Assembly: GCA_947453335.1 (NCBI GenBank)
Contig: CANGFP010000001.1
Location: forward strand, 62,001-126,000
Source: Opitutia bacterium
Lineage (GTDB): Bacteria; Verrucomicrobiota; Verrucomicrobiia; Opitutales; UBA953
Reading direction: 5' to 3'
DNA length: 64,000 nucleotides
Position numbers and translations under genes: made by a program. The notes under the pieces are model-generated. The model was not told the origin of the DNA. It was given only the letters and a program-made list of their open reading frames with translations, and did no database searches. Below, piece after piece: positions 622 to 63,880 of this stretch; positions within the stretch are counted from its first letter, which is position 1, and each line of letters begins with the position of its first letter.

Positions 622-1122
622 TCAACCTTCGCCGTGGTCGTCGGGGCCGTCCGTCGCGTCCTCGTCGTTCGCCGCCGTCTTCTTGCCGGTCGCCGTCTTC
701 TTCTCGGTGCGCGCCTTGAGCATCTTCTCGCGGAACGCGGCCCGTTGCTTCTTCAGGAGGTCCGCCGCTTCGGGATCCTGCTTGGCCAGCGCGTCTTCGT
801 AGGCCTTGCGGTAGGCCGTCTCGGATTCCGCCGCCTTGGTCCGGGCGTGTTTGTATTCGGCGGCGGCCTTGGCGGCCAACGCGCGGTCGGCCTTGGCCTG
901 CTGTTGGGCTTCGGCGACCTCGGGCAGGGCATGCACCTTGTGCTTGGCCGTGCTCAGCTTGTCCTGTTCGGGATTCCCGTCGGCCGTGTCGCCTTCGGCC
1001 GCGGCGGGTTGGGCCGGCGCGGCCGGCTCGTGCTTGGGCGCGTTCGCCTTGGCGGCGAGGAGCGGGGAGGGGAGGGCGCCGGCGAGAAGGCCGGCGGCGA
1101 GGAGGAGGGGGATGAGTTTCAT
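622..1122 (-). CDS. Exported Ala/Lys/Glu-rich helical protein, unknown function
   Basis: A 166-residue protein of unrecognised family. The start was set at MKLIPLLLAAGLLAGALPS because this gives a clean Sec signal peptide ending near ALPSPLLAAKA; the frame stays open much further upstream but without a sensible N-terminus. The mature part is rich in A, K, E and Q (residues about 60-150) and looks like one long charged helix or coiled coil, ending in an acidic tail (DEDATDGPDDHGEG). It is probably periplasmic. It is convergent with the PLP enzyme and divergent from the next secreted protein. Confidence 0.65.
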   Translation of the reverse strand: MKLIPLLLAAGLLAGALPSPLLAAKANAPKHEPAAPAQPAAAEGDTADGNPEQDKLSTAKHKVHALPEVAEAQQQAKADRALAAKAAAEYKHARTKAAESETAYRKAYEDALAKQDPEAADLLKKQRAAFREKMLKARTEKKTATGKKTAANDEDATDGPDDHGEG

Positions 1123-3552: not shown

Positions 3553-3585
3553 GGCGCCGTCGGTCCGCCGGGCCCGCCCCCGTCC

Positions 3586-4776
3586 ATGTATCGCCTCGCC
3601 CTGAACATGCTCTTCGGAGATCGCGCCAAGCTCGCGATGCTCCTCTGCGGCCTGGCGTTCTCCGCCCTCCTGATGGCGCAGCAGACCTCGGTCTTCTTCG
3701 GCATCATGAGCTGGACGTACACGCCCGTGCACAACATCCGCGCGCGGATCTGGGTCAGCGACCCGATGGTCGAGCAGGCCAACGACGCCAAGCCGCTCCG
3801 CGACACCGACCTCTACCGCGTGCGTTCCGTCGACGGCGTCGCCTGGGCCGCCCCGCTGCACACGTCCTTCGTCCAGGCGCGCATGCAGGACGGCAACTTC
3901 AAGCTGATCACGCTCATCGGCCTCGACGCCGATACGTTCGCCGGCGCTCCGGCCACGCTCTCCGCCGGCCGCATCGAGGACCTCCGCCTGCCCAACACCG
4001 TCATCGTCGACGAATGGGGCGCGCAGCTCATGGGCCGGCCGGTGGTCGGGCCCGACGGCAAGGAGACCACCGTGCCGCTCAAGGTCGGCGACACCTTCGA
4101 GGTGAACGACCTCGAGGCCCGCATCGTCGGGATCTGCAAGGTCCGCCGCGCGTTCACCGGCGGCCCGTTCGTCTACACCACCTACGACCGCACCAAGCAG
4201 TACACCCTCGGCGCGCGCCGCACGCTCAGCTTCATGCTCGTCGAGCCGCAGCCGGGCGTCGACGCTTCCGCCTTGTGCGACCGCATCGAGGCCGACACCG
4301 GCCTCAAGGCGTGGACCTCCGACACCGTCATCTGGGACTGGTCCGACCGCAGCCTGGCCCGCAACACGTTCTGGTGGTTCTGGAAGAACACGGGCATCCC
4401 GTTCTCCTTCGGCACCGCGGTCGCGCTCGGGCTCTTCGTCGGCATCGCGGTCTCGGGCCAGACGTTCTACTCGTTCGTGCTGGAGAACCTGAAGTACTTC
4501 GCGGCCATCAAGGCGATGGGCGCGGGGATGGGCGTCATCGCGCGCATGCTCCTCGTCCAGGCCTTCACCGCGGGCCTCCTCGGCTTCGGTCTCGGCGTCG
4601 GGATGGCCCAGGCCATCGGCCGCGCGATGATCGAGAAGGGCATGCCCCCGTTCGTGATGTTCCCGCAGATCTTCTGGGCGACGCTCGCGCTGGTGCTCGG
4701 CATCAGCCTGGTCTCCGCCGTCATCGGCATCATCAAGGTCTCGCGCGTCGACGCGGCCACCGTCTTCCGCGGATGA
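3586..4776 (+). CDS. ABC transporter permease, DevC/FtsX type
   Basis: 396 residues. One N-terminal membrane helix (about 17-38) is followed by a large periplasmic domain (about 45-265) and three C-terminal helices (about 270-395), the MacB/FtsX/DevC layout. The next three genes encode its ATPase, membrane-fusion protein and outer-membrane factor, so this is the inner-membrane permease of a tripartite exporter. The substrate is unknown; relatives export lipids, peptides or glycolipids. The stop overlaps the ATPase start (ATGA). Confidence 0.85.
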
Positions 4777-57942: not shown

Positions 57943-58887
57943 ATGCGCCTCCGCCACCCCGTCGCCCTCCTGTTCGCCGCCTGCGCCGCCGCCGTCGCGG
58001 CGTCCGGCCCCAACGACTCGTCCATCGGTCCCGACTACAAGCCCGCGCCGGAGATGGCGGCGAAGCCCGGCGTGCCGAAGGGGACGATCAAGGAGTTCGT
58101 CATCGAGTCGACCGAGAGCAAGCTGTACCCCGGCATCGCCAAGAACAAGCCCGGCGAGGTCGTGCCCTACCGCCGCAAGGTCCAGGTCTACATCCCCGCC
58201 CAGTACGTCGCCGGCAAGCCCACCCCCTTCATCGTCGTGACCGACGGCCCTTGGTACACCAAGCGCATGGCCACGGCGCTCGACAACCTCATCGCCGAGA
58301 AGCGCGTCCCCGTGCAGGTCGCCGTCATGGTCGAATCCGGCGGCGGCGACAGCAAGGGCAGCCAGCGCGGGCTCGAGTACGACACGATGTCGGGCAAGTA
58401 CGCCGAGTTTATCGAGACCGAGATCCTCCCGCGCGTGACCAAGGAGACTGGCGTCGTCTTCAGCAAGAACCCCGACGAACGCGCGGCCATGGGCGGCAGC
58501 TCCGGCGCGGCCGCGGCCCTCACGATGGCCTGGTACCACCCCGAGCTCTACCGTCGCGTCCTCAGCTACTCCGGCACCTTCGTCGACCAGCAGTACCCGA
58601 CCGACCCCAAGACCCCGCACGGCGCCTGGGAGTACCACGAGAACCTCATCGCCAAGACCGCCAAGAAGCCCCTCCGCATCTGGCTGCAGGTCGGCGAGAA
58701 GGACAACGGTTGGGACCGCGACGAAGCCTCGCTGCACAACTGGGTCATGGCCAACGAACGCATGGCCGAAGTCCTCGCCAAGAAAGGATACGCCTACCAG
58801 TACGTCTTCTGCAGGAAAGCCGGCCACGTCGACGGCAAGGCCGTCGCAGCCACGCTCCCCTCCGCCCTCGAGTGGATCTGGAAGTGA
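57943..58887 (+). CDS. Secreted esterase, enterochelin-esterase/EstD-like alpha/beta hydrolase
   Basis: 314 residues from MRLRHP (an ATG 7 codons upstream is open). Signal peptide HPVALLFAACAAAVAASG. The hydrolase core has YIPAQYVAGKPTPFIVVTDGPWY, the nucleophile elbow AMGGSSGAAAALTMAWYHPELY (Ser in GSSGA, about residue 188), QVGEKDNGWD (acid) and CRKAGHVDGKAV (catalytic His, about 292). Relatives hydrolyse siderophore or polysaccharide esters; the substrate here is unknown. It is exported, so it may be a client of the nearby secretion system. Confidence 0.85.
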   Translation: MRLRHPVALLFAACAAAVAASGPNDSSIGPDYKPAPEMAAKPGVPKGTIKEFVIESTESKLYPGIAKNKPGEVVPYRRKVQVYIPAQYVAGKPTPFIVVTDGPWYTKRMATALDNLIAEKRVPVQVAVMVESGGGDSKGSQRGLEYDTMSGKYAEFIETEILPRVTKETGVVFSKNPDERAAMGGSSGAAAALTMAWYHPELYRRVLSYSGTFVDQQYPTDPKTPHGAWEYHENLIAKTAKKPLRIWLQVGEKDNGWDRDEASLHNWVMANERMAEVLAKKGYAYQYVFCRKAGHVDGKAVAATLPSALEWIWK

Positions 58888-58901
58888 GCGTCTAAAGACG
58901 C
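58888..58901 (+). terminator. Short hairpin after the esterase gene
   Basis: GCGTC-TAAA-GACGC directly after the stop. Its core CGTCTAAAGACG matches the hairpin after the DUF1552 gene, and both run straight into a composite repeat, so it may belong to the repeat. Confidence 0.45.
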
Positions 58902-58904
58902 GAG

Positions 58905-59161
58905 TAGGGTTGCGGGATGCGGGTTGCGGGTCGCGAGTGGTGCTGCCTCGGGTAGGGACAGCACCACGTGCTGTCCTAGTTGCGTCGGGTAGGGTTGGGA
59001 CGGCGTCACAACCTGCGCCATGGGGTCAGGCCTTACCGCGTTCACGCGACGTGGCCTGACCTCGTTGGCGCAGCCTCGAGGACTGAGTCGAATGATATGG
59101 CGGCTCCGCCGCCGCACTCCCCTCAACCCCCAACCCGCACCCCACAACCCGCATCCCTCAT
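58905..59161. repeat. Palindromic composite repeat, copy C
   Basis: G-rich left arm GGGTTGCGGGATGCGGGTTG; 26-nt units at 58953-58978 (stem ACAGCAC/GTGCTGT) and 58990-59015 (TTG/CAA); 38-nt hairpin at 59024-59061; the GAGGACTGAGTCGAATGAT segment; GCGGC hairpin; C-rich right arm to CCCTCA. No coding capacity. Confidence 0.85.
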
Positions 59162-59220
59162 CGTGCCCTAAGTGCTTTCCCCAATTGCCATCTCCACCCT
59201 CCACCCTCAACTTGGGTCTA

Positions 59221-59283
59221 GGTGTGTAGGCCAACTCGCTTGGCCGAGATATCTCCCAGAGGGGCGCGCAAGCGCCCCTTTTT
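59221..59283 (+). terminator. Hairpin plus intrinsic terminator, first copy
   Basis: GGCCAA-CTCGC-TTGGCC (59229-59245) and then GGGGCGC-GCAA-GCGCCCC-TTTTT (59261-59283). The T tract faces the plus strand, so it would stop transcription running from the esterase side into the DUF3800 gene. A near copy follows the second DUF3800 gene. Confidence 0.8.
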
Positions 59284-59960
59284 CATGCGGGCCGCCTCAA
59301 GAAGACCTGTTCCGAGCGCCGGAGAATCCTGCGGCTATGGGCATCCGAGAACGTTTTCGCGGGTGCGTTCGCTTGCTTTGTCAGGTAGGCGAGGAGATCG
59401 GCGAGCTGCAGGAACTGCGTGTCGCGTGAATCCATCCCAAATGGTTGCTCTATGATGCTGGCCCTGACCTCGGGCGGCATCTTTTCCAGCAGTCCGCGCC
59501 GAGGGGCGGAGCGATGGTCATCGCAGATCACGATCATCCCGTGGGCGGGGCAATTCTCCGGTGGAGTGGCCGTCAGGAGTTCGCATGCTTGTTGAAGAAG
59601 GCAACGCCAGGCCTCCTCCCGCGGGCTCATGTCCGACGTTGCTTTGGCGAAGGTGGTCCGCAGGGGCATCAGGAAAGCGTTTCTGGAGATGAAGCCCAAC
59701 ACGTGCAGGGCGCATCGGTAGCGTACGTTTCTGGCTAGACTCAGGTGACGGTCGTCACGGCCCAGGAATTCGGAAGCATGCAGCTCCGTGAGAGGGTGCA
59801 GCCCGAATTGCGCATGCAGTCTGCACCGCATCTCCGTCGTGGCGGCATATGCCTTCCGCCAGTCCGCATGATGGACCAGGATTCCGCAGAGGATGAAGTG
59901 ACGACTGGAGCTGGGCTTTGATCCGACGTCGCCGCTCTCGTCGACATAAAGAAAATGCAT
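59283..59960 (-). CDS. DUF3800-family protein, paralogue 1
   Basis: 225 residues. The family opening MHFLYVDESGDVG (Asp7, Glu8, Asp11), HFILCGILVHHADWR, ELHASEFLG, GMIVICDDHRSAP and the closing acidic motif FLQLADLLAYLTKQ (about 185-198) fit the RNase-H-like DUF3800 family, in which the N- and C-terminal Asp are presumed metal ligands. Function is unproven; a nuclease is the usual suggestion. GC is lower than in housekeeping genes. The first 37 residues are nearly identical to paralogue 2, while the rest differs strongly. Confidence 0.85.
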   Translation of the reverse strand: MHFLYVDESGDVGSKPSSSRHFILCGILVHHADWRKAYAATTEMRCRLHAQFGLHPLTELHASEFLGRDDRHLSLARNVRYRCALHVLGFISRNAFLMPLRTTFAKATSDMSPREEAWRCLLQQACELLTATPPENCPAHGMIVICDDHRSAPRRGLLEKMPPEVRASIIEQPFGMDSRDTQFLQLADLLAYLTKQANAPAKTFSDAHSRRILRRSEQVFLRRPA

Positions 59961-60165
59961 CCCCGAGCCGAAACCACCCGCCCGCGCGCAGCAACCCCGC
60001 CACCCTAAGGTTCATTTTCCACGAACCCCTCTGCCTTGGGTAGGGTTGGGACGGCGTCACAACCTGCGCCATGGGGTCAGGCTTTGTCGCGTTCACGCGA
60101 CGTGGCCTGACCTCGTTGGCGCAGCCTCGAGGACTGAGTCGAATGATATGGCGGCTTCGCCGCGC
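59851..60165. repeat. Duplicated 5'-end block, copy 1
   Basis: About 315 bp covering the first 37 codons of DUF3800 paralogue 1, its upstream region and the first half of repeat D. It matches 60940-61254 with about seven differences counted by eye, at an offset of exactly 1089 bp. Confidence 0.9.
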
Positions 60166-60231
60166 GTTTCCTCAACCCCCAACCCCCAACCCCCAACCCT
60201 CAACCCGCACCCCACAACCCGCATCCCTCAT
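60031..60231. repeat. Palindromic composite repeat, copy D
   Basis: Lacks the G-rich left arm. 26-nt unit at 60041-60066 (TTG/CAA), 38-nt hairpin at 60075-60112, GAGGACTGAGTCGAATGAT segment, GCGGC-TTC-GCCGC and an extended C-rich arm with four CAACCCC units. It lies within the gap 59961-60347 between the two DUF3800 genes. Confidence 0.85.
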
Positions 60232-60290
60232 CGTGCCCTAAGTACTTTCCCCAATTGCCATCTCCACCCTCCACCCTCAAATTCAGTCCA

Positions 60291-60350
60291 GGTGTGTAGG
60301 CCAACTCGCTTGGCCGAGATATCTCCAAGGGGGCGCGCAAGCGCCCCTTA
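60291..60350 (+). terminator. Hairpin plus terminator-like stem, second copy
   Basis: GGCCAA-CTCGC-TTGGCC and then GGGGCGC-GCAA-GCGCCCC-TTA (60330-60350). It matches 59221-59283 but has lost the T run. TTA here is the reverse complement of the TAA stop of the second DUF3800 gene. Confidence 0.6.
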
Positions 60351-61049
60351 TCCTTTTACGTGACATCGCTGACCGCGTTCGGTCCAGAGCCGGCTATGGC
60401 GCCGGAGCAGCTGCTGGCCGCCGGAGGTTCCGAAGAAATGATTGGGCAACAAGGATTGCTTCATCAAGAAACACAGCAAGTCACAGGCTTGAAGGAGGTG
60501 GCTGTCTTGGGACTCTCTGCCGAAAGGGAGTTCGATCAGCCAAGCAGCCAGTTGTGGTTGGGCGGAAAGCGTCGCTTGGGACCATAGTCGCCCTGGAGAA
60601 GCCCGAGGGCTGTCGCAGATGATGGCAAGGCCCTTGGAATGACAGTCGGCATGCGGTCCGGATATCCCAATGCGCTCGATTGCGATTCGCGTTAACTCGG
60701 CCCACGCTAAAGAGGTCGGGTCGATGGCTCCTTTGTCCACCACGACGCATAAGGGCGTTAGCTCGGGCTGTTTCTGGATGCATCCGAGCGAATGCAGCAG
60801 GCTCTGCAGTCGTTGCCTTTGGGAGAGGCCTAGATGGTTGCTCGAGTCGCCCAGAAACTCGGAAGCATGCAGCTCCGCGTCGAGCGGCAGCCCGTGGAAA
60901 GTTTGCAGTCGTTCCCGCATCGCTTGCAGCCGACCGTTGGCCTTCCGCCAGTCCGCATGATGGACCAGGATTCCGCAGAGGATGAAGTGACGGCTGGAGC
61001 CGGGCTTTGCTCCGACGTCGCCGCTCTCGTCGACATAAAGAAAATGCAT
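60348..61049 (-). CDS. DUF3800-family protein, paralogue 2
   Basis: 233 residues. Same N-terminus as paralogue 1 (MHFLYVDESGDVGAKPGSSR, HFILCGILVHHADWRKA), then ELHASEFLG, LAIICDSPRASPG and a closing LLQACDLLCFLMKQ in which Asp is kept but the LAD context is altered. Beyond residue 37 the two proteins share only family motifs. It probably keeps the RNase-H-like fold. Flanking sequence on both sides is shared with paralogue 1, giving a tandem unit of about 1.09 kb. Confidence 0.85.
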   Translation of the reverse strand: MHFLYVDESGDVGAKPGSSRHFILCGILVHHADWRKANGRLQAMRERLQTFHGLPLDAELHASEFLGDSSNHLGLSQRQRLQSLLHSLGCIQKQPELTPLCVVVDKGAIDPTSLAWAELTRIAIERIGISGPHADCHSKGLAIICDSPRASPGRLWSQATLSAQPQLAAWLIELPFGRESQDSHLLQACDLLCFLMKQSLLPNHFFGTSGGQQLLRRHSRLWTERGQRCHVKG

Positions 61050-61254
61050 CCCCGAGCCGAAACCACCCGCCCGCGCGCAGCAACCCCGCCACCCTAAGGT
61101 TCATTTTCCGGGAACCCCTCTGCCTCGGGTAGGGTTGGGACGGCGTCACAACCTGCGCCAGGGGGTCAGGCTTTGTCGCGTTCACGCGACGTGGCCTGAC
61201 CTCGTTGGCGCAGCCTCGAGGACTGAGTCGAATGATATGGCGGCTTCGCCGCGC
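60940..61254. repeat. Duplicated 5'-end block, copy 2
   Basis: Partner of 59851-60165, covering the first 37 codons of paralogue 2, the promoter region and the first half of repeat E. Confidence 0.9.
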
Positions 61255-61384
61255 ACTCCCCTCAACCCCCAACCCGCACCCCACAACCCACGCCGCCCCG
61301 GCCCGCGTCGCGTCCGTTCGCCAATCAACGTGCCAGGTCGTGACGCCGTCCCGACCCTACCCGAGGCATCCGCGCACTCCCCTC
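61121..61384. repeat. Palindromic composite repeat, copy E
   Basis: 26-nt unit at 61130-61155 (TTG/CAA), 38-nt hairpin at 61164-61201, GCGGC hairpin, C-rich block, then an inverted 26-nt unit at 61334-61359 (TCG/CGA). It fills the gap between DUF3800 paralogue 2 and the Sel1-like gene. Confidence 0.85.
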
Positions 61385-61401
61385 CACGGGCCGTGCCCGT
61401 G
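61385..61401 (-). terminator. Hairpin at the stop of the Sel1-like gene
   Basis: CACGGGC-CGT-GCCCGTG, a perfect 7-bp stem with a 3-base loop one base past the stop. It resembles in layout the hairpin ending the minus-strand gsp operon. No U tract. Confidence 0.5.
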
Positions 61402-61402
61402 C

Positions 61403-62500
61403 TCACTTCGCCTTCAGCAGGATGCGTTCGACGTAATCCTTTTCGGTGGGCATACGGGCGAGGATGGAGCGGGTCAGCTCCTGGCCGGCGGCGAGCTCGG
61501 CCGGCGACAGGCGGGCCTGCAGGGCCTTGAGCCGCTCCTCGACCGCGGCCCGCTTCGCCGCCTCCTCCTGCAGGCGTTTGCGTTGAGCGGCGTCCGGCTG
61601 CAGGGACGGCTCCACGTTCCCAGGCGCCAGCTGCATCGCCACCAACGACCAGGCGTACGACTTGCTCGCGTCGACGGGCGCGTAGCGGTTCCCCTCATGG
61701 ATCTGGGCTAGACGGCAGCACGCCTCGAAGTCGCGGGAAAGGGCCGCCTGCTCGAAGCAGGCGATCCCTTGGGCGAAGTTCTGCACCAGGATCGCCTCGC
61801 CCGCCTCATCGGTGAAGCCTTGGCGCCCCTCCAGGTAGAGCTCGCCGACCTTGCGCAAGGCCGTGCGCGTCCCGCGTTCGGCCGAGTTGAGCAGCAGACG
61901 GTAGCCCCGCTGTTCGAGGGTGCGGTCAACCGGATGCGCGGACAGGGCCCGCTCCAGCAGGAGATCGCCCAGCACCCGTCTACCGAGCGGATCCTGATGG
62001 TCGGCGGCCTCCTGCGCGTAGCGCTCCAGGAGAGCCCGGTCGACCGGCGCCTGCGGATCCGCCGCCAGGTCGCGCTGCAGGAAGGAAGCCAGCACCGCCT
62101 TGGCGCGGACCAGGTCGCCCTCGGCCGCTTTTCGGAAATACGCGCGGGCCACCGCGAGGTCGACCGGCGCGATCCGGTATTCCTTGGGCAACCGGTCCGT
62201 CCGGCGCAGCCCGTAGACGAACTGCGCGAACGCGTGGCCCCCATCGGCCTTGGCCTGCAGCTCCTCGGCCGGACGCCGCAGGTCGTTCAGGCCATGGAAG
62301 TCATCCCACCCATCCGCGACGTCCTGACGGATCGCGTGGGGCAGCCCCAGCAGGTTCGTCCGGTAGAGCCGGCAGCCCTCGTAGGCGCCGAAGGCCGCGA
62401 CGAAACCCAGCGCCACCGGCAACCGCAGGCGCACGAACGCGCGCAGCCCCTGATGCCCGACCCAATTCACGCGCTGCTTCCAGGATCTCATCGTCCCCAT
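61403..62500 (-). CDS. Membrane-anchored Sel1/TPR-like repeat protein
   Basis: 365 residues from MGTMRSWKQ; ATGs six codons upstream (62518) and three codons downstream (62491) are alternatives. One N-terminal membrane helix (about 22-42; LPVALGFVAAFGAYEG). The rest is helical repeats with the Sel1 look (AQFVYGLRRTDRL, VARAYFRKAAEGDLVRAKAVLASFL, LGRRVLGDLLLERA, QGIACFEQAALSRDFEACCRLAQIHEGN), suited to protein-protein contacts. A charged helix (about 300-345) ends it. Function is unknown; repeat elements lie on both sides. Confidence 0.75.
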   Translation of the reverse strand: MGTMRSWKQRVNWVGHQGLRAFVRLRLPVALGFVAAFGAYEGCRLYRTNLLGLPHAIRQDVADGWDDFHGLNDLRRPAEELQAKADGGHAFAQFVYGLRRTDRLPKEYRIAPVDLAVARAYFRKAAEGDLVRAKAVLASFLQRDLAADPQAPVDRALLERYAQEAADHQDPLGRRVLGDLLLERALSAHPVDRTLEQRGYRLLLNSAERGTRTALRKVGELYLEGRQGFTDEAGEAILVQNFAQGIACFEQAALSRDFEACCRLAQIHEGNRYAPVDASKSYAWSLVAMQLAPGNVEPSLQPDAAQRKRLQEEAAKRAAVEERLKALQARLSPAELAAGQELTRSILARMPTEKDYVERILLKAK

Positions 62501-62542
62501 CCCTAATCCCCACAGCATAAGAATACAAGAAGGGAGGGACCG

Positions 62543-62887
62543 ATGAGGGTTGCGGGGTGTGGGTTGTGGGTCGCGAGTTGTCCTACCTCGGGTAGGGACG
62601 GGACGGCGTCACGTCCTCGCGCAGGGGGTCAGGCTTTGTCGCGTTCACGCGACGTGGCCTGACTTCGTTGGCGCAGCCTCGAGGACTGAGTCGAATGATA
62701 TGGCGGCTCCGCCGCCGCACTCCCCTCAACCCTAAACCCTCAACCCACAACCCACGCCGCCCCGGCCCGCGTCGCGTCCGTTCGCCGAGCAACGTACCAG
62801 GTCGTGACGCCGTCCCGACCCTACCCGACACATCCGCAGCGCGTTTCCCCCGCCCGCAACCCCCAACCCGCACCCCACAACCCTCAT
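62543..62887. repeat. Palindromic composite repeat, copy F (complete)
   Basis: 345 bp. Terminal inverted arms ATGAGGGTTGCGGGGTGTGG and its counterpart, whose reverse complement begins ATGAGGGTTGTGGGGTGCGG. Contents in order: 26-nt unit 62593-62618 (ACG/CGT), 38-nt hairpin 62627-62664, GAGGACTGAGTCGAATGAT, GCGGC hairpin, C-rich block, inverted 26-nt unit 62798-62823 (TCG/CGA), C-rich arm. It lies between divergent gene starts. Confidence 0.88.
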
Positions 62888-62920
62888 AGAATTACCCTCC
62901 AGATTTCGACAATCCTACTG

Positions 62921-62930
62921 CAGGGCCCTG
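62921..62930. promoter_or_regulatory. Palindrome before the toxin gene, candidate antitoxin operator
   Basis: CAGGGCCCTG, a perfect 10-bp palindrome 25 bases before the toxin ATG and just ahead of a -10-like CATAAC (62938-62943). XRE antitoxins usually bind such sites to repress their own operon. Confidence 0.4.
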
Positions 62931-62954
62931 GTGGTTCCATAACTCCGCGGCGTC

Positions 62955-63311
62955 ATGTGGAAACTGCAACCTGCCGCCTCGTTCGAGAGGGCCCGTAAGC
63001 GTTATGAGAAGAAACGCCCAGGAGAGTTGGCGGCAGTCTTGCGCAACCTCGATCGCCTGCGCGAACACCTCGATGCTTTGCCCGATTGCCGCGCGGCGCA
63101 GATGGGCTGCCTTCACTTCGAGCCGCATGGCGTCTGGGCCATCGATCAGCATGGCCCCAGCAAGGTCCGCCTTCAGGAGACCCGCCTCTACGTATTCCCC
63201 TCAGGCGGCGATTGGACCTTGCACATTATAACTGTAGGGAATAAAAACTCCCAGGCGTCGGACATCCGTCTGTCCGCCGCGTTCGTCGCCTCCCTGCCTT
63301 CTTCCTCCTGA
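62955..63311 (+). CDS. RelE/ParE-superfamily (HigB-like) toxin
   Basis: 118 residues. Basic N-terminus (SFERARKRYEKKRPGELAAVLR), central RLREHLDALPDCRAAQ, then VRLQETRLYVFPSGGDWTLHIITVGNKNSQASDIRLSAAF, where the GNKNSQASDI string matches the GDKxxQxxDI signature of small RelE-like addiction toxins. These are mRNA interferases acting at the ribosome. The toxin-first order with an XRE antitoxin 2 bp downstream is the HigBA arrangement. Confidence 0.8.
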   Translation: MWKLQPAASFERARKRYEKKRPGELAAVLRNLDRLREHLDALPDCRAAQMGCLHFEPHGVWAIDQHGPSKVRLQETRLYVFPSGGDWTLHIITVGNKNSQASDIRLSAAFVASLPSSS

Positions 63312-63313
63312 CC

Positions 63314-63880
63314 ATGCGTTCCTCTCCGACCCAGAAAACCAACCTCAAGCCCGGTGCGCGTGCCTATGCTTCGGTGGAAGCGCTCATGAAAGGGGAGGGC
63401 GTCTCCGCAGAGGTCCAGCAGGCCTATGCTCGGCTCGTCGAGGATACCCGCATCACCGACGGACTGACCCGACTGCGCCGCTCCGCGAAGCTGACCCAGG
63501 CGGAAATCGCCGAGCGCCTATCCGTGACCCAGGCGGCGGTGTCCAAGATCGAGTCCGGCCGGGATGAGACCCTGACCTTGGCCATCATCAGCGCCTATGC
63601 CGCGGGGTCCAAGCAGCGTATCAACATCACGTTTGGCCGCCCCTTGACCCACGTGGAATCGGTAAAGGAACACGCCCTGGGTCTGAAGCATCACCTCGAG
63701 GCCTTGGCTAAGTTGGCTCACAAGGACGAAGCCATCGCCAAAGGCATCGAAGGCTTCTTCCACGAGGCCACCGTCAACATCGACCGCATCGTCTTGCGCT
63801 GCCGCGAACAGTTGCCCAGAAGCCGCAAGCCCGAGATCCGCATGCAGACGCACCTGGCGCCTAGTCCCGTTGCGAGGTAG
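63314..63880 (+). CDS. XRE-family (HigA-like) antitoxin with long C-terminal extension
   Basis: 188 residues. The helix-turn-helix lies at about 52-90 (GLTRLRRSAKLTQAEIAERL, SVTQAAVSKIESGRDETL), preceded by a 50-residue N-terminal part that may bind the toxin. A further 85-residue C-terminal extension (about 103-188; VKEHALGLKHHLEALAKLAH) is unusual for HigA. It neutralises the toxin and probably represses the operon. The TAG stop (63878-63880) is the first three bases of a 26-nt repeat unit, so the C-terminus appears set by repeat insertion. Confidence 0.82.
   Translation: MRSSPTQKTNLKPGARAYASVEALMKGEGVSAEVQQAYARLVEDTRITDGLTRLRRSAKLTQAEIAERLSVTQAAVSKIESGRDETLTLAIISAYAAGSKQRINITFGRPLTHVESVKEHALGLKHHLEALAKLAHKDEAIAKGIEGFFHEATVNIDRIVLRCREQLPRSRKPEIRMQTHLAPSPVAR

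What the first reader, a model, noticed from the sequence alone, without database searches (positions are those of the whole stretch)
59283..61049. Tandem DUF3800 genes with nearly identical ends and strongly diverged middles
Two DUF3800 genes lie 1089 bp apart. Their first 37 codons and upstream 200 bases (59851-60165 and 60940-61254) differ at about seven positions, and their 3' flanks with terminator hairpins (59157-59283 and 60227-60350) also match. Beyond codon 37 the proteins share only family motifs. A plain recent duplication cannot give this; exchange of the variable body inside constant flanks, or repeated gene conversion of the ends, can. That pattern is known for diversifying effector or defence loci.
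Basis: partly seen in the sequence, partly recalled or inferred. Interest (0 to 1): 0.68.

Follow-up and report, generated by a model that had tools for sequence, protein, structure and literature searches.

The report
Nuclease–small-RNA modules that swap bodies
Two neighbouring copies of a predicted nuclease gene share their beginning and a small RNA gene at their end but have unrelated-looking middles, and sister species show the same pattern at other loci, so bacteria appear to recombine the middle of a nuclease–small-RNA module while keeping its frame.

Summary
Genes A (59283-59960, -) and B (60348-61049, -) are 98% identical over 300 bp spanning the 5' intergenic region and codons 1-37 (third positions 35/37 identical), and about 94% identical in the 3' flank. 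The bodies are 35% identical at protein level (48% at DNA level). B's body groups with another species (G008, 100% support), and an A+B clade is rejected (AU p=1.4e-4).

The same square-wave pattern separates orthologous DUF3800 loci of different species in this Opitutia genus, so body exchange by recombination is supported beyond this pair, although there the 5' breakpoint is at codon 14, not 37.

It abuts the stop codon of all 17 intact A/B-type genes checked. Rfam does not contain it, but Rfam's DUF3800-IX sRNA sits identically beside DUF3800 genes in other Verrucomicrobiota. B's RNA is itself a two-class chimera.

AlphaFold gives an RNase HII-like nuclease. Best reading: a new family of DUF3800-nuclease/sRNA modules, mosaic through homologous recombination. 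Toxin-antitoxin or defence function is inferred only.

The parts
59283..59960 (-). Gene A: DUF3800 protein, 225 aa; body nearest to G073/G012-type proteins
   Evidence: Pfam PF12686 58.3 bits; tree
60348..61049 (-). Gene B: DUF3800 protein, 233 aa; body related to G008 and G021; AlphaFold model RNase HII-like
   Evidence: Pfam 47 bits; pLDDT 91.4
59851..60150 (-). Constant 5' block of A: REP-like repeat, 5' UTR, codons 1-37
   Evidence: 98% identical to 60940-61239; profile
60940..61239 (-). Constant 5' block of B; 5' UTR related to that of G021 (77/105)
59220..59284 (+). sRNA gene of A: class I 5' half AGGTGTGTAGG..GAGATATCTCC, P1/P2 helices, terminator hairpin with GCAA loop and U-run overlapping A's stop codon
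   Evidence: model R2 79.8 bits; covariation; fold z -4.1
60290..60357 (+). sRNA gene of B: class I 5' half joined to class II terminator half (chimera)
   Evidence: R2 77.8 bits; half-by-half comparison; terminator scan
59185..59188 (+). -35-like TTGC of A's sRNA, 35 nt upstream of RNA start
   Evidence: T at -34 in 33/33 distinct upstream sequences
60255..60258 (+). -35-like TTGC of B's sRNA
58985..59150 (.). Intergenic composite palindromic repeat block (REP-like), left end of the array
   Evidence: family D1
60036..60201 (.). REP-like block between A and B (runs into A's 5' block)
61125..61290 (.). REP-like block upstream of B
62588..62753 (.). REP-like block upstream of the SEL1-like gene

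Best explanation
A and B are two copies of a two-gene module: a DUF3800 protein (predicted RNase HII-like nuclease) and, convergent with it and touching its stop codon, a ~65-nt structured small RNA. Shown: the RNA is conserved across the genus with compensatory changes, a fixed -35-like motif and a terminator, and it accompanies every intact A/B-type gene examined. Shown: the two copies are mosaics. A carries the B-lineage 5' end on an A-lineage body and RNA. B carries its own 5' end and body, but the outer half of its RNA is A-type, so the joints lie at codon 37/38 and inside the RNA gene. Shown: orthologous loci in other species have likewise exchanged bodies between constant flanks, with joints at codon 14 and in the RNA gene. 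Inferred: the exchange is homologous recombination or gene conversion, using the conserved N-terminal coding segment and the RNA gene (and here the flanking REP-like repeats) as homology. Inferred: the constant N-terminus and RNA are kept because the RNA binds or controls the nuclease as an RNP or toxin-antitoxin-like pair, while the body sets target or partner specificity and is under pressure to vary.
For: Square-wave identity profiles in A/B and in X/Y species pairs (G070/G024 shows less clear edges). G007/G064: -729..+116 at 90%, +700..827 at 91%, downstream 933-2198 at 79%, and no DNA match in the body. Flank data reject X-body monophyly (AU 1e-44) and body data reject the flank tree (AU 1e-19). 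A+B body monophyly is rejected (AU 1.4e-4) and B+G008 has 100% support. B's RNA 5' half is 37/37 identical to A's but 26/38 to G008's, while its 3' half is 31/34 to G008's and 26/35 to A's. RNA: R2 finds 36 strong loci in 28 of 55 genus genomes. 31 double-change cells against 8.2 +/- 2.3 in shuffles. T at -34 in 33/33. Other DUF3800 clades of the genus have their own convergent RNA-like elements, and one set was folded with a P1(P2)-P3 layout. Rfam DUF3800-IX sits the same way in three other Verrucomicrobiota. Fold: RNase HII, Foldseek E 4e-4, VIA Z 9.3 over 164 residues. Published AlphaFold work also calls DUF3800 an RNase H fold nuclease previously linked to ncRNAs (PMC10910872).
Against: No expression, binding, toxicity or defence data. 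Helix P1 has no compensatory changes within the class. No -10 consensus was found. About eight strong RNA copies lie without an adjacent DUF3800, so the RNA may have a role of its own. Only one genome per species is held, so within-species exchange is unseen. No PADLOC match.
Confidence: 0.7

Rival explanations
1. Passive end homogenisation: A and B are old, independent DUF3800 paralogs whose ends were made alike by gene conversion spreading out of the near-identical REP-like blocks on either side, with no adaptive exchange of bodies.
For: REP-like blocks of 84-98% identity flank every gene of the array, and both similarity tracts touch such blocks. A's 5' end can be read as a conversion from B.
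Against: At the X/Y loci the outer flanks are single orthologous loci, so there it is the body that was replaced. The joint inside B's RNA falls at a functional boundary.
Confidence: 0.3
2. Recent tandem duplication followed by very fast divergence of the body (hypermutation, diversity-generating retroelement or positive selection).
For: The ends are nearly identical and the copies are in tandem.
Against: The bodies belong to different clades that predate the species: B+G008 100%, A+B rejected at p=1.4e-4; they also differ by indels.
Confidence: 0.02
3. The 3' element is only a transcription terminator or DNA hairpin of the DUF3800 transcription unit, not a small RNA gene.
For: It contains a strong GC-rich hairpin at the stop codon; no transcript has been seen.
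Against: The U-run lies on the other strand. A second covarying hairpin and invariant flanking sequence precede it, with -35-like TTGC at a fixed distance. The Rfam sRNA DUF3800-IX has the same position and strand relative to its gene. Copies without an adjacent DUF3800 keep compensated stems.
Confidence: 0.1
4. A dedicated cassette machine (integron-like or site-specific recombinase) moves DUF3800 bodies.
For: Repeat-bounded genes at 1.0-1.5 kb spacing; in a relative the interval between the esterase and the HTH antitoxin-like gene has different cargo.
Against: The joints differ between loci (codon 14 and codon 37) and fall in conserved coding sequence. The genes of the array are on both strands. 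No recombinase was noticed beside the array, though none was searched for.
Confidence: 0.03

Closest known systems
Rfam DUF3800-IX RNA (RF02968) and the other DUF3800 RNA motifs
   Same: sRNA of ~65 nt, ending in a U-run, convergent with and abutting a DUF3800 gene (L171-L173).
   Different: No Rfam family matches the RNAs here. The layout differs: DUF3800-IX has one long closing helix around two hairpins; the RNA here is P1 enclosing P2, followed by a separate terminator hairpin. Body exchange was not described in the sources I could read.
RNase HII
   Same: Predicted fold (Z 9.3); adjacent D-E on the first strand and invariant D146 and D190, in the manner of the RNase HII D-E-D-D site (the site comparison is from my own knowledge).
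   Different: 8-13% identity; invariant E59 and K106 of its own; genetically tied to an sRNA; not known to act in ribonucleotide repair.
DUF3800 accessory nuclease of Cas12a2/type V-A2 and VI-F loci (PMC10910872, PMC12669027)
   Same: Same Pfam family and RNase H fold.
   Different: No CRISPR array or Cas12/13 was noted beside this locus; the protein here is a stand-alone DUF3800 domain without TPR.
Type I and type III toxin-antitoxin modules
   Same: Small protein gene plus small structured RNA gene in one compact unit.
   Different: RNA converges on the 3' end and is strongly conserved; it is a single unit, not tandem repeats; toxicity unknown.
hsdS-type or allele-exchange loci with constant flanks and variable middle
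   Same: Recombination swaps a middle segment between conserved ends.
   Different: The swapped segment is most of a predicted nuclease, and one constant end is an RNA gene.

Membership tests
DUF3800 (PF12686) | Profile match above the gathering score | tested here: met
   58.3 and 47.0 bits, cut-off 21
RNase H-like nucleases | RNase H fold with conserved acidic residues | tested here: met
   AlphaFold pLDDT 91.4; RNase HII best in Foldseek and VIA; D7, E8, D11, E59, D146, D190 invariant in 20 sequences
RNase H-like nucleases | Nuclease activity | not testable with these tools
   needs protein
DUF3800-associated sRNAs (the kind) | Structured RNA conserved beside DUF3800 genes | tested here: met
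   All 17 intact A/B-type genes; covariation; strong RNA hits in 20 of 21 genomes with a DUF3800 match below 1e-20, not always adjacent; the exception, G021, is truncated
Rfam DUF3800-I to -XI (existing families) | Match to an existing covariance model | tested here: not met
   No such family in the window with E up to 5, in further loci with E up to 5, or at gathering score
Type III toxin-antitoxin | RNA antitoxin made of tandem repeats upstream of the toxin gene | tested here: not met
   Single RNA unit, convergent at the 3' end
Toxin-antitoxin in general | Protein toxic without the RNA, neutralised with it | not testable with these tools
   needs experiment
OMEGA/TnpB-like RNA-guided nucleases | RNA with a variable guide segment next to a constant scaffold | tested here: inconclusive
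   The predicted RNA is constant from start to terminator apart from compensated stem changes and the linker, so no guide is seen; but the transcript ends are not mapped
Integron cassette arrays | attC sites and an IntI integrase | not tested
   No search for IntI or attC was made; joints differ between loci
Known anti-phage systems (PADLOC) | Match to a PADLOC model | tested here: not met
   0 families for A and B

The most novel reading that the evidence does not exclude
DUF3800 proteins are RNA-dependent nucleases whose N-terminal segment and clade-specific convergent sRNA form a constant, interchangeable chassis. Species refresh the specificity-bearing body by recombining it between the N-terminal coding segment and the RNA gene, giving a modular RNA-nuclease immunity or addiction system whose RNA can outlive the protein as an immunity remnant.
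Probability: 0.25. Interest if true: 0.85.

Novelty: new variant of a known kind. Interest (0 to 1): 0.62.

Why it matters
DUF3800-linked RNAs are catalogued but, as far as I could find, unexplained. Here one genus offers many natural module chimeras: the same RNA half with different bodies, the same body with different RNA halves, and RNA copies without the protein. That makes the question of what the RNA does for the nuclease directly testable by mixing natural parts. It also shows that DUF3800 bodies are exchanged between species at fixed loci, which would be expected if they are in an arms race.

Tried and rejected
Weinberg et al. 2017 (NAR gkx699), which I recall as the source of the DUF3800 RNA motifs, is not held. 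Rfam matches in the window are chance level. A first RNA model (R1) had a misplaced stem and was replaced by R2. The idea that codon 37 is a universal breakpoint, suggested by BLAST ends, was rejected after the finer profile (codon 14 in X/Y). tRNA-end integration was considered for the X/Y locus and rejected: tRNA-Ser(GCU) is divergent, with its 5' end facing the gene. Phages and plasmids gave no protein match; 32 viral contigs with a short RNA-like pattern failed the covariance model. No PDB chain matches convincingly by sequence. R2 found nothing outside the genus in 335 class genomes at E<1e-5, with strict filters. DUF3800-I was found in none of 288 phylum genomes nor in the controls, so that search shows nothing.

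Full report
OBSERVATION. The window is G000:C1:62001-126000, a 63%-complete genome; contigs of its relatives are titled Opitutia/Verrucomicrobiota. Genes A and B are DUF3800 proteins. Their 5' blocks are 98% identical over 300 bp, of which about 111 bp is coding, and their 3' flanks about 94%. Codons 1-37 are 107/111 identical, the rest 260/546; third positions 35/37 and 72/182. Purifying selection alone cannot explain matching third positions and matching intergenic DNA, and a plain duplication cannot explain the bodies.

BODIES ARE OF DIFFERENT ORIGIN. In a tree of 17 bodies, B groups with G008 (100%) and A lies near G073; A+B as sisters is rejected (AU p=1.4e-4). The first 37 codons put A with B. 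The 5' UTR shared by A and B resembles that of G021 (77/105, shuffle maximum 69), which also has a B-like body up to about codon 115 before a transposase-like sequence interrupts it. So the shared 5' end belongs to the B lineage and A is the chimera on that side.

THE SAME PATTERN IN OTHER SPECIES. DUF3800 genes with two body types (X: G007, G004, G070 and a remnant in G058; Y: G064, G025, G028, G024, G023, G009, G014) were compared across the genus. In the six of these loci where a tRNA was seen, tRNA-Ser(GCU) is divergent and nearby. G007 (X) and G064 (Y) are 90% identical from -729 to +116 and 79% identical downstream, but the bodies show no DNA match. G028/G070, G004/G064 and G014/G058 behave likewise. 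Fine profiles place the 5' joint at codon 14 in X/Y pairs and codon 37 in A/B, and the 3' joint at the end of the gene, inside the RNA gene described below. Flank data reject X monophyly (AU 1e-44), and body data reject the flank tree (AU 1e-19).

THE CONSTANT 3' END IS A SMALL RNA GENE. Immediately after the stop codon of all 17 intact A/B/X/Y-type genes, or overlapping their last codons, lies on the opposite strand AGGTGTGTAGG-[hairpin]-GAGATATCTC-[GC hairpin]-U-run, or a class II variant starting AGGTTTGGAAG. In the window these are + 59220-59284 and + 60290-60357. TTGC precedes the start by 34-35 nt in nearly all, and T at -34 is invariant in 33 distinct sequences while most of the spacer is not conserved, as for a promoter; no -10 consensus was found. 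Helices P2 and P3 carry compensatory changes (31 double-change cells against 8.2 +/- 2.3 in shuffles), while P1 shows none. A's and B's RNAs fold at z about -4. R2 finds 36 strong loci in 28 of 55 genus genomes and none in the sampled rest of the class. About eight copies have no adjacent DUF3800, yet keep compensated stems.

IT IS A NEW MEMBER OF A KNOWN KIND. No Rfam family matches. But Rfam's sRNA DUF3800-IX occurs in four of 288 Verrucomicrobiota, and in three of these it is convergent with a DUF3800 gene and abuts or overlaps its stop codon, exactly as here. Within the genus, DUF3800 clades C, D, E and F each have their own conserved element in the same place; clade C folds as P1(P2)-P3 with covariation. 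The module of DUF3800 gene plus convergent sRNA therefore seems to be the rule in this genus.

B'S RNA IS A CHIMERA. The two halves have different histories: the 5' half is 37/37 identical to A's and 26/38 to G008's; the 3' half is 31/34 identical to G008's and 26/35 to A's. One recombination joint thus lies inside the RNA gene. Between them A and B have exchanged ends: 5'B-bodyA-3'A and 5'B-bodyB-3'A. The order of events is not resolved.

PROTEIN. AlphaFold gives pLDDT 91. Best matches are RNase HII (Foldseek E 4e-4; Z 9.3 over 164 residues), followed by RNase H3 and Argonaute PIWI domains. D7, E8, D11, E59, D146 and D190 are invariant. Published AlphaFold work reaches the same fold and notes the earlier link to ncRNAs (PMC10910872); a 2025 classification calls DUF3800 an RNase H fold nuclease (PMC12669027). 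The A/B-constant segment holds strands 1 and 2 with D7, E8 and D11; the exchanged body holds E59, D146 and D190.

HOW IT PROBABLY WORKS. Shown: module anatomy, mosaicism, exchange between species. Inferred: homologous recombination through the conserved N-terminal coding segment, the RNA gene and, at this locus, the REP-like blocks. Inferred: the RNA binds or controls the nuclease, and the body sets specificity. Whether the unit is a toxin-antitoxin pair, an RNP effector against mobile DNA, or something else is open. The strongest rival is passive homogenisation of ends at this locus by gene conversion seeded in the repeats; it cannot explain the X/Y loci but could explain A/B.

LIMITS. One genome per species, many drafts; no transcript or protein data; the primary paper on DUF3800 RNA motifs could not be read and is cited from memory.

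Noticed in passing
L005 4248-4820 and 5334-5987 (G000:C3): A second tandem DUF3800 pair in the same genome, of other clades; the 5334-5987 gene has a clade C element at its 3' end and a clade D-like orphan RNA lies at L005 about 3563-3633 (-) (weak R2 hit, 21 bits).
   Followed up: partly
58985-59150, 60036-60201, 61125-61290, 62588-62753: Composite intergenic palindromic repeats (GGTCAGGC..GCGTTCACGC..GCCTGACC plus CAACCC runs), REP-like, present in many genomes of the genus; origin unknown.
   Followed up: no
L093 1839-5017 compared with window 58887-62955: Between the orthologous esterase and the HTH antitoxin-like gene pair, relative G020 carries lipoprotein and outer-membrane-like genes instead of A, B and the SEL1-like gene: same slot, different cargo.
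   Followed up: partly
L135 1594-2349 and L147 1024-1686: A gene resembling NYN-type ribonucleases (YVDGFNLYYGA motif, identified by eye) sits near an sRNA whose DUF3800 is missing or truncated, in two species.
   Followed up: no
L162 (G011:C31): The DUF3800 beside tRNA-Ser in G011 is of a quite different clade (F) with its own RNA-like element, so that slot hosts several module types.
   Followed up: no
L092 11227-11853: The B-like gene of G021 is interrupted after about codon 115 by an IS3-type transposase-like fragment and has lost the RNA.
   Followed up: no
62955-63880: Toxin-antitoxin-like pair next to the array: 118 aa protein without Pfam match plus 188 aa HTH protein; conserved in G020.
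   Followed up: no
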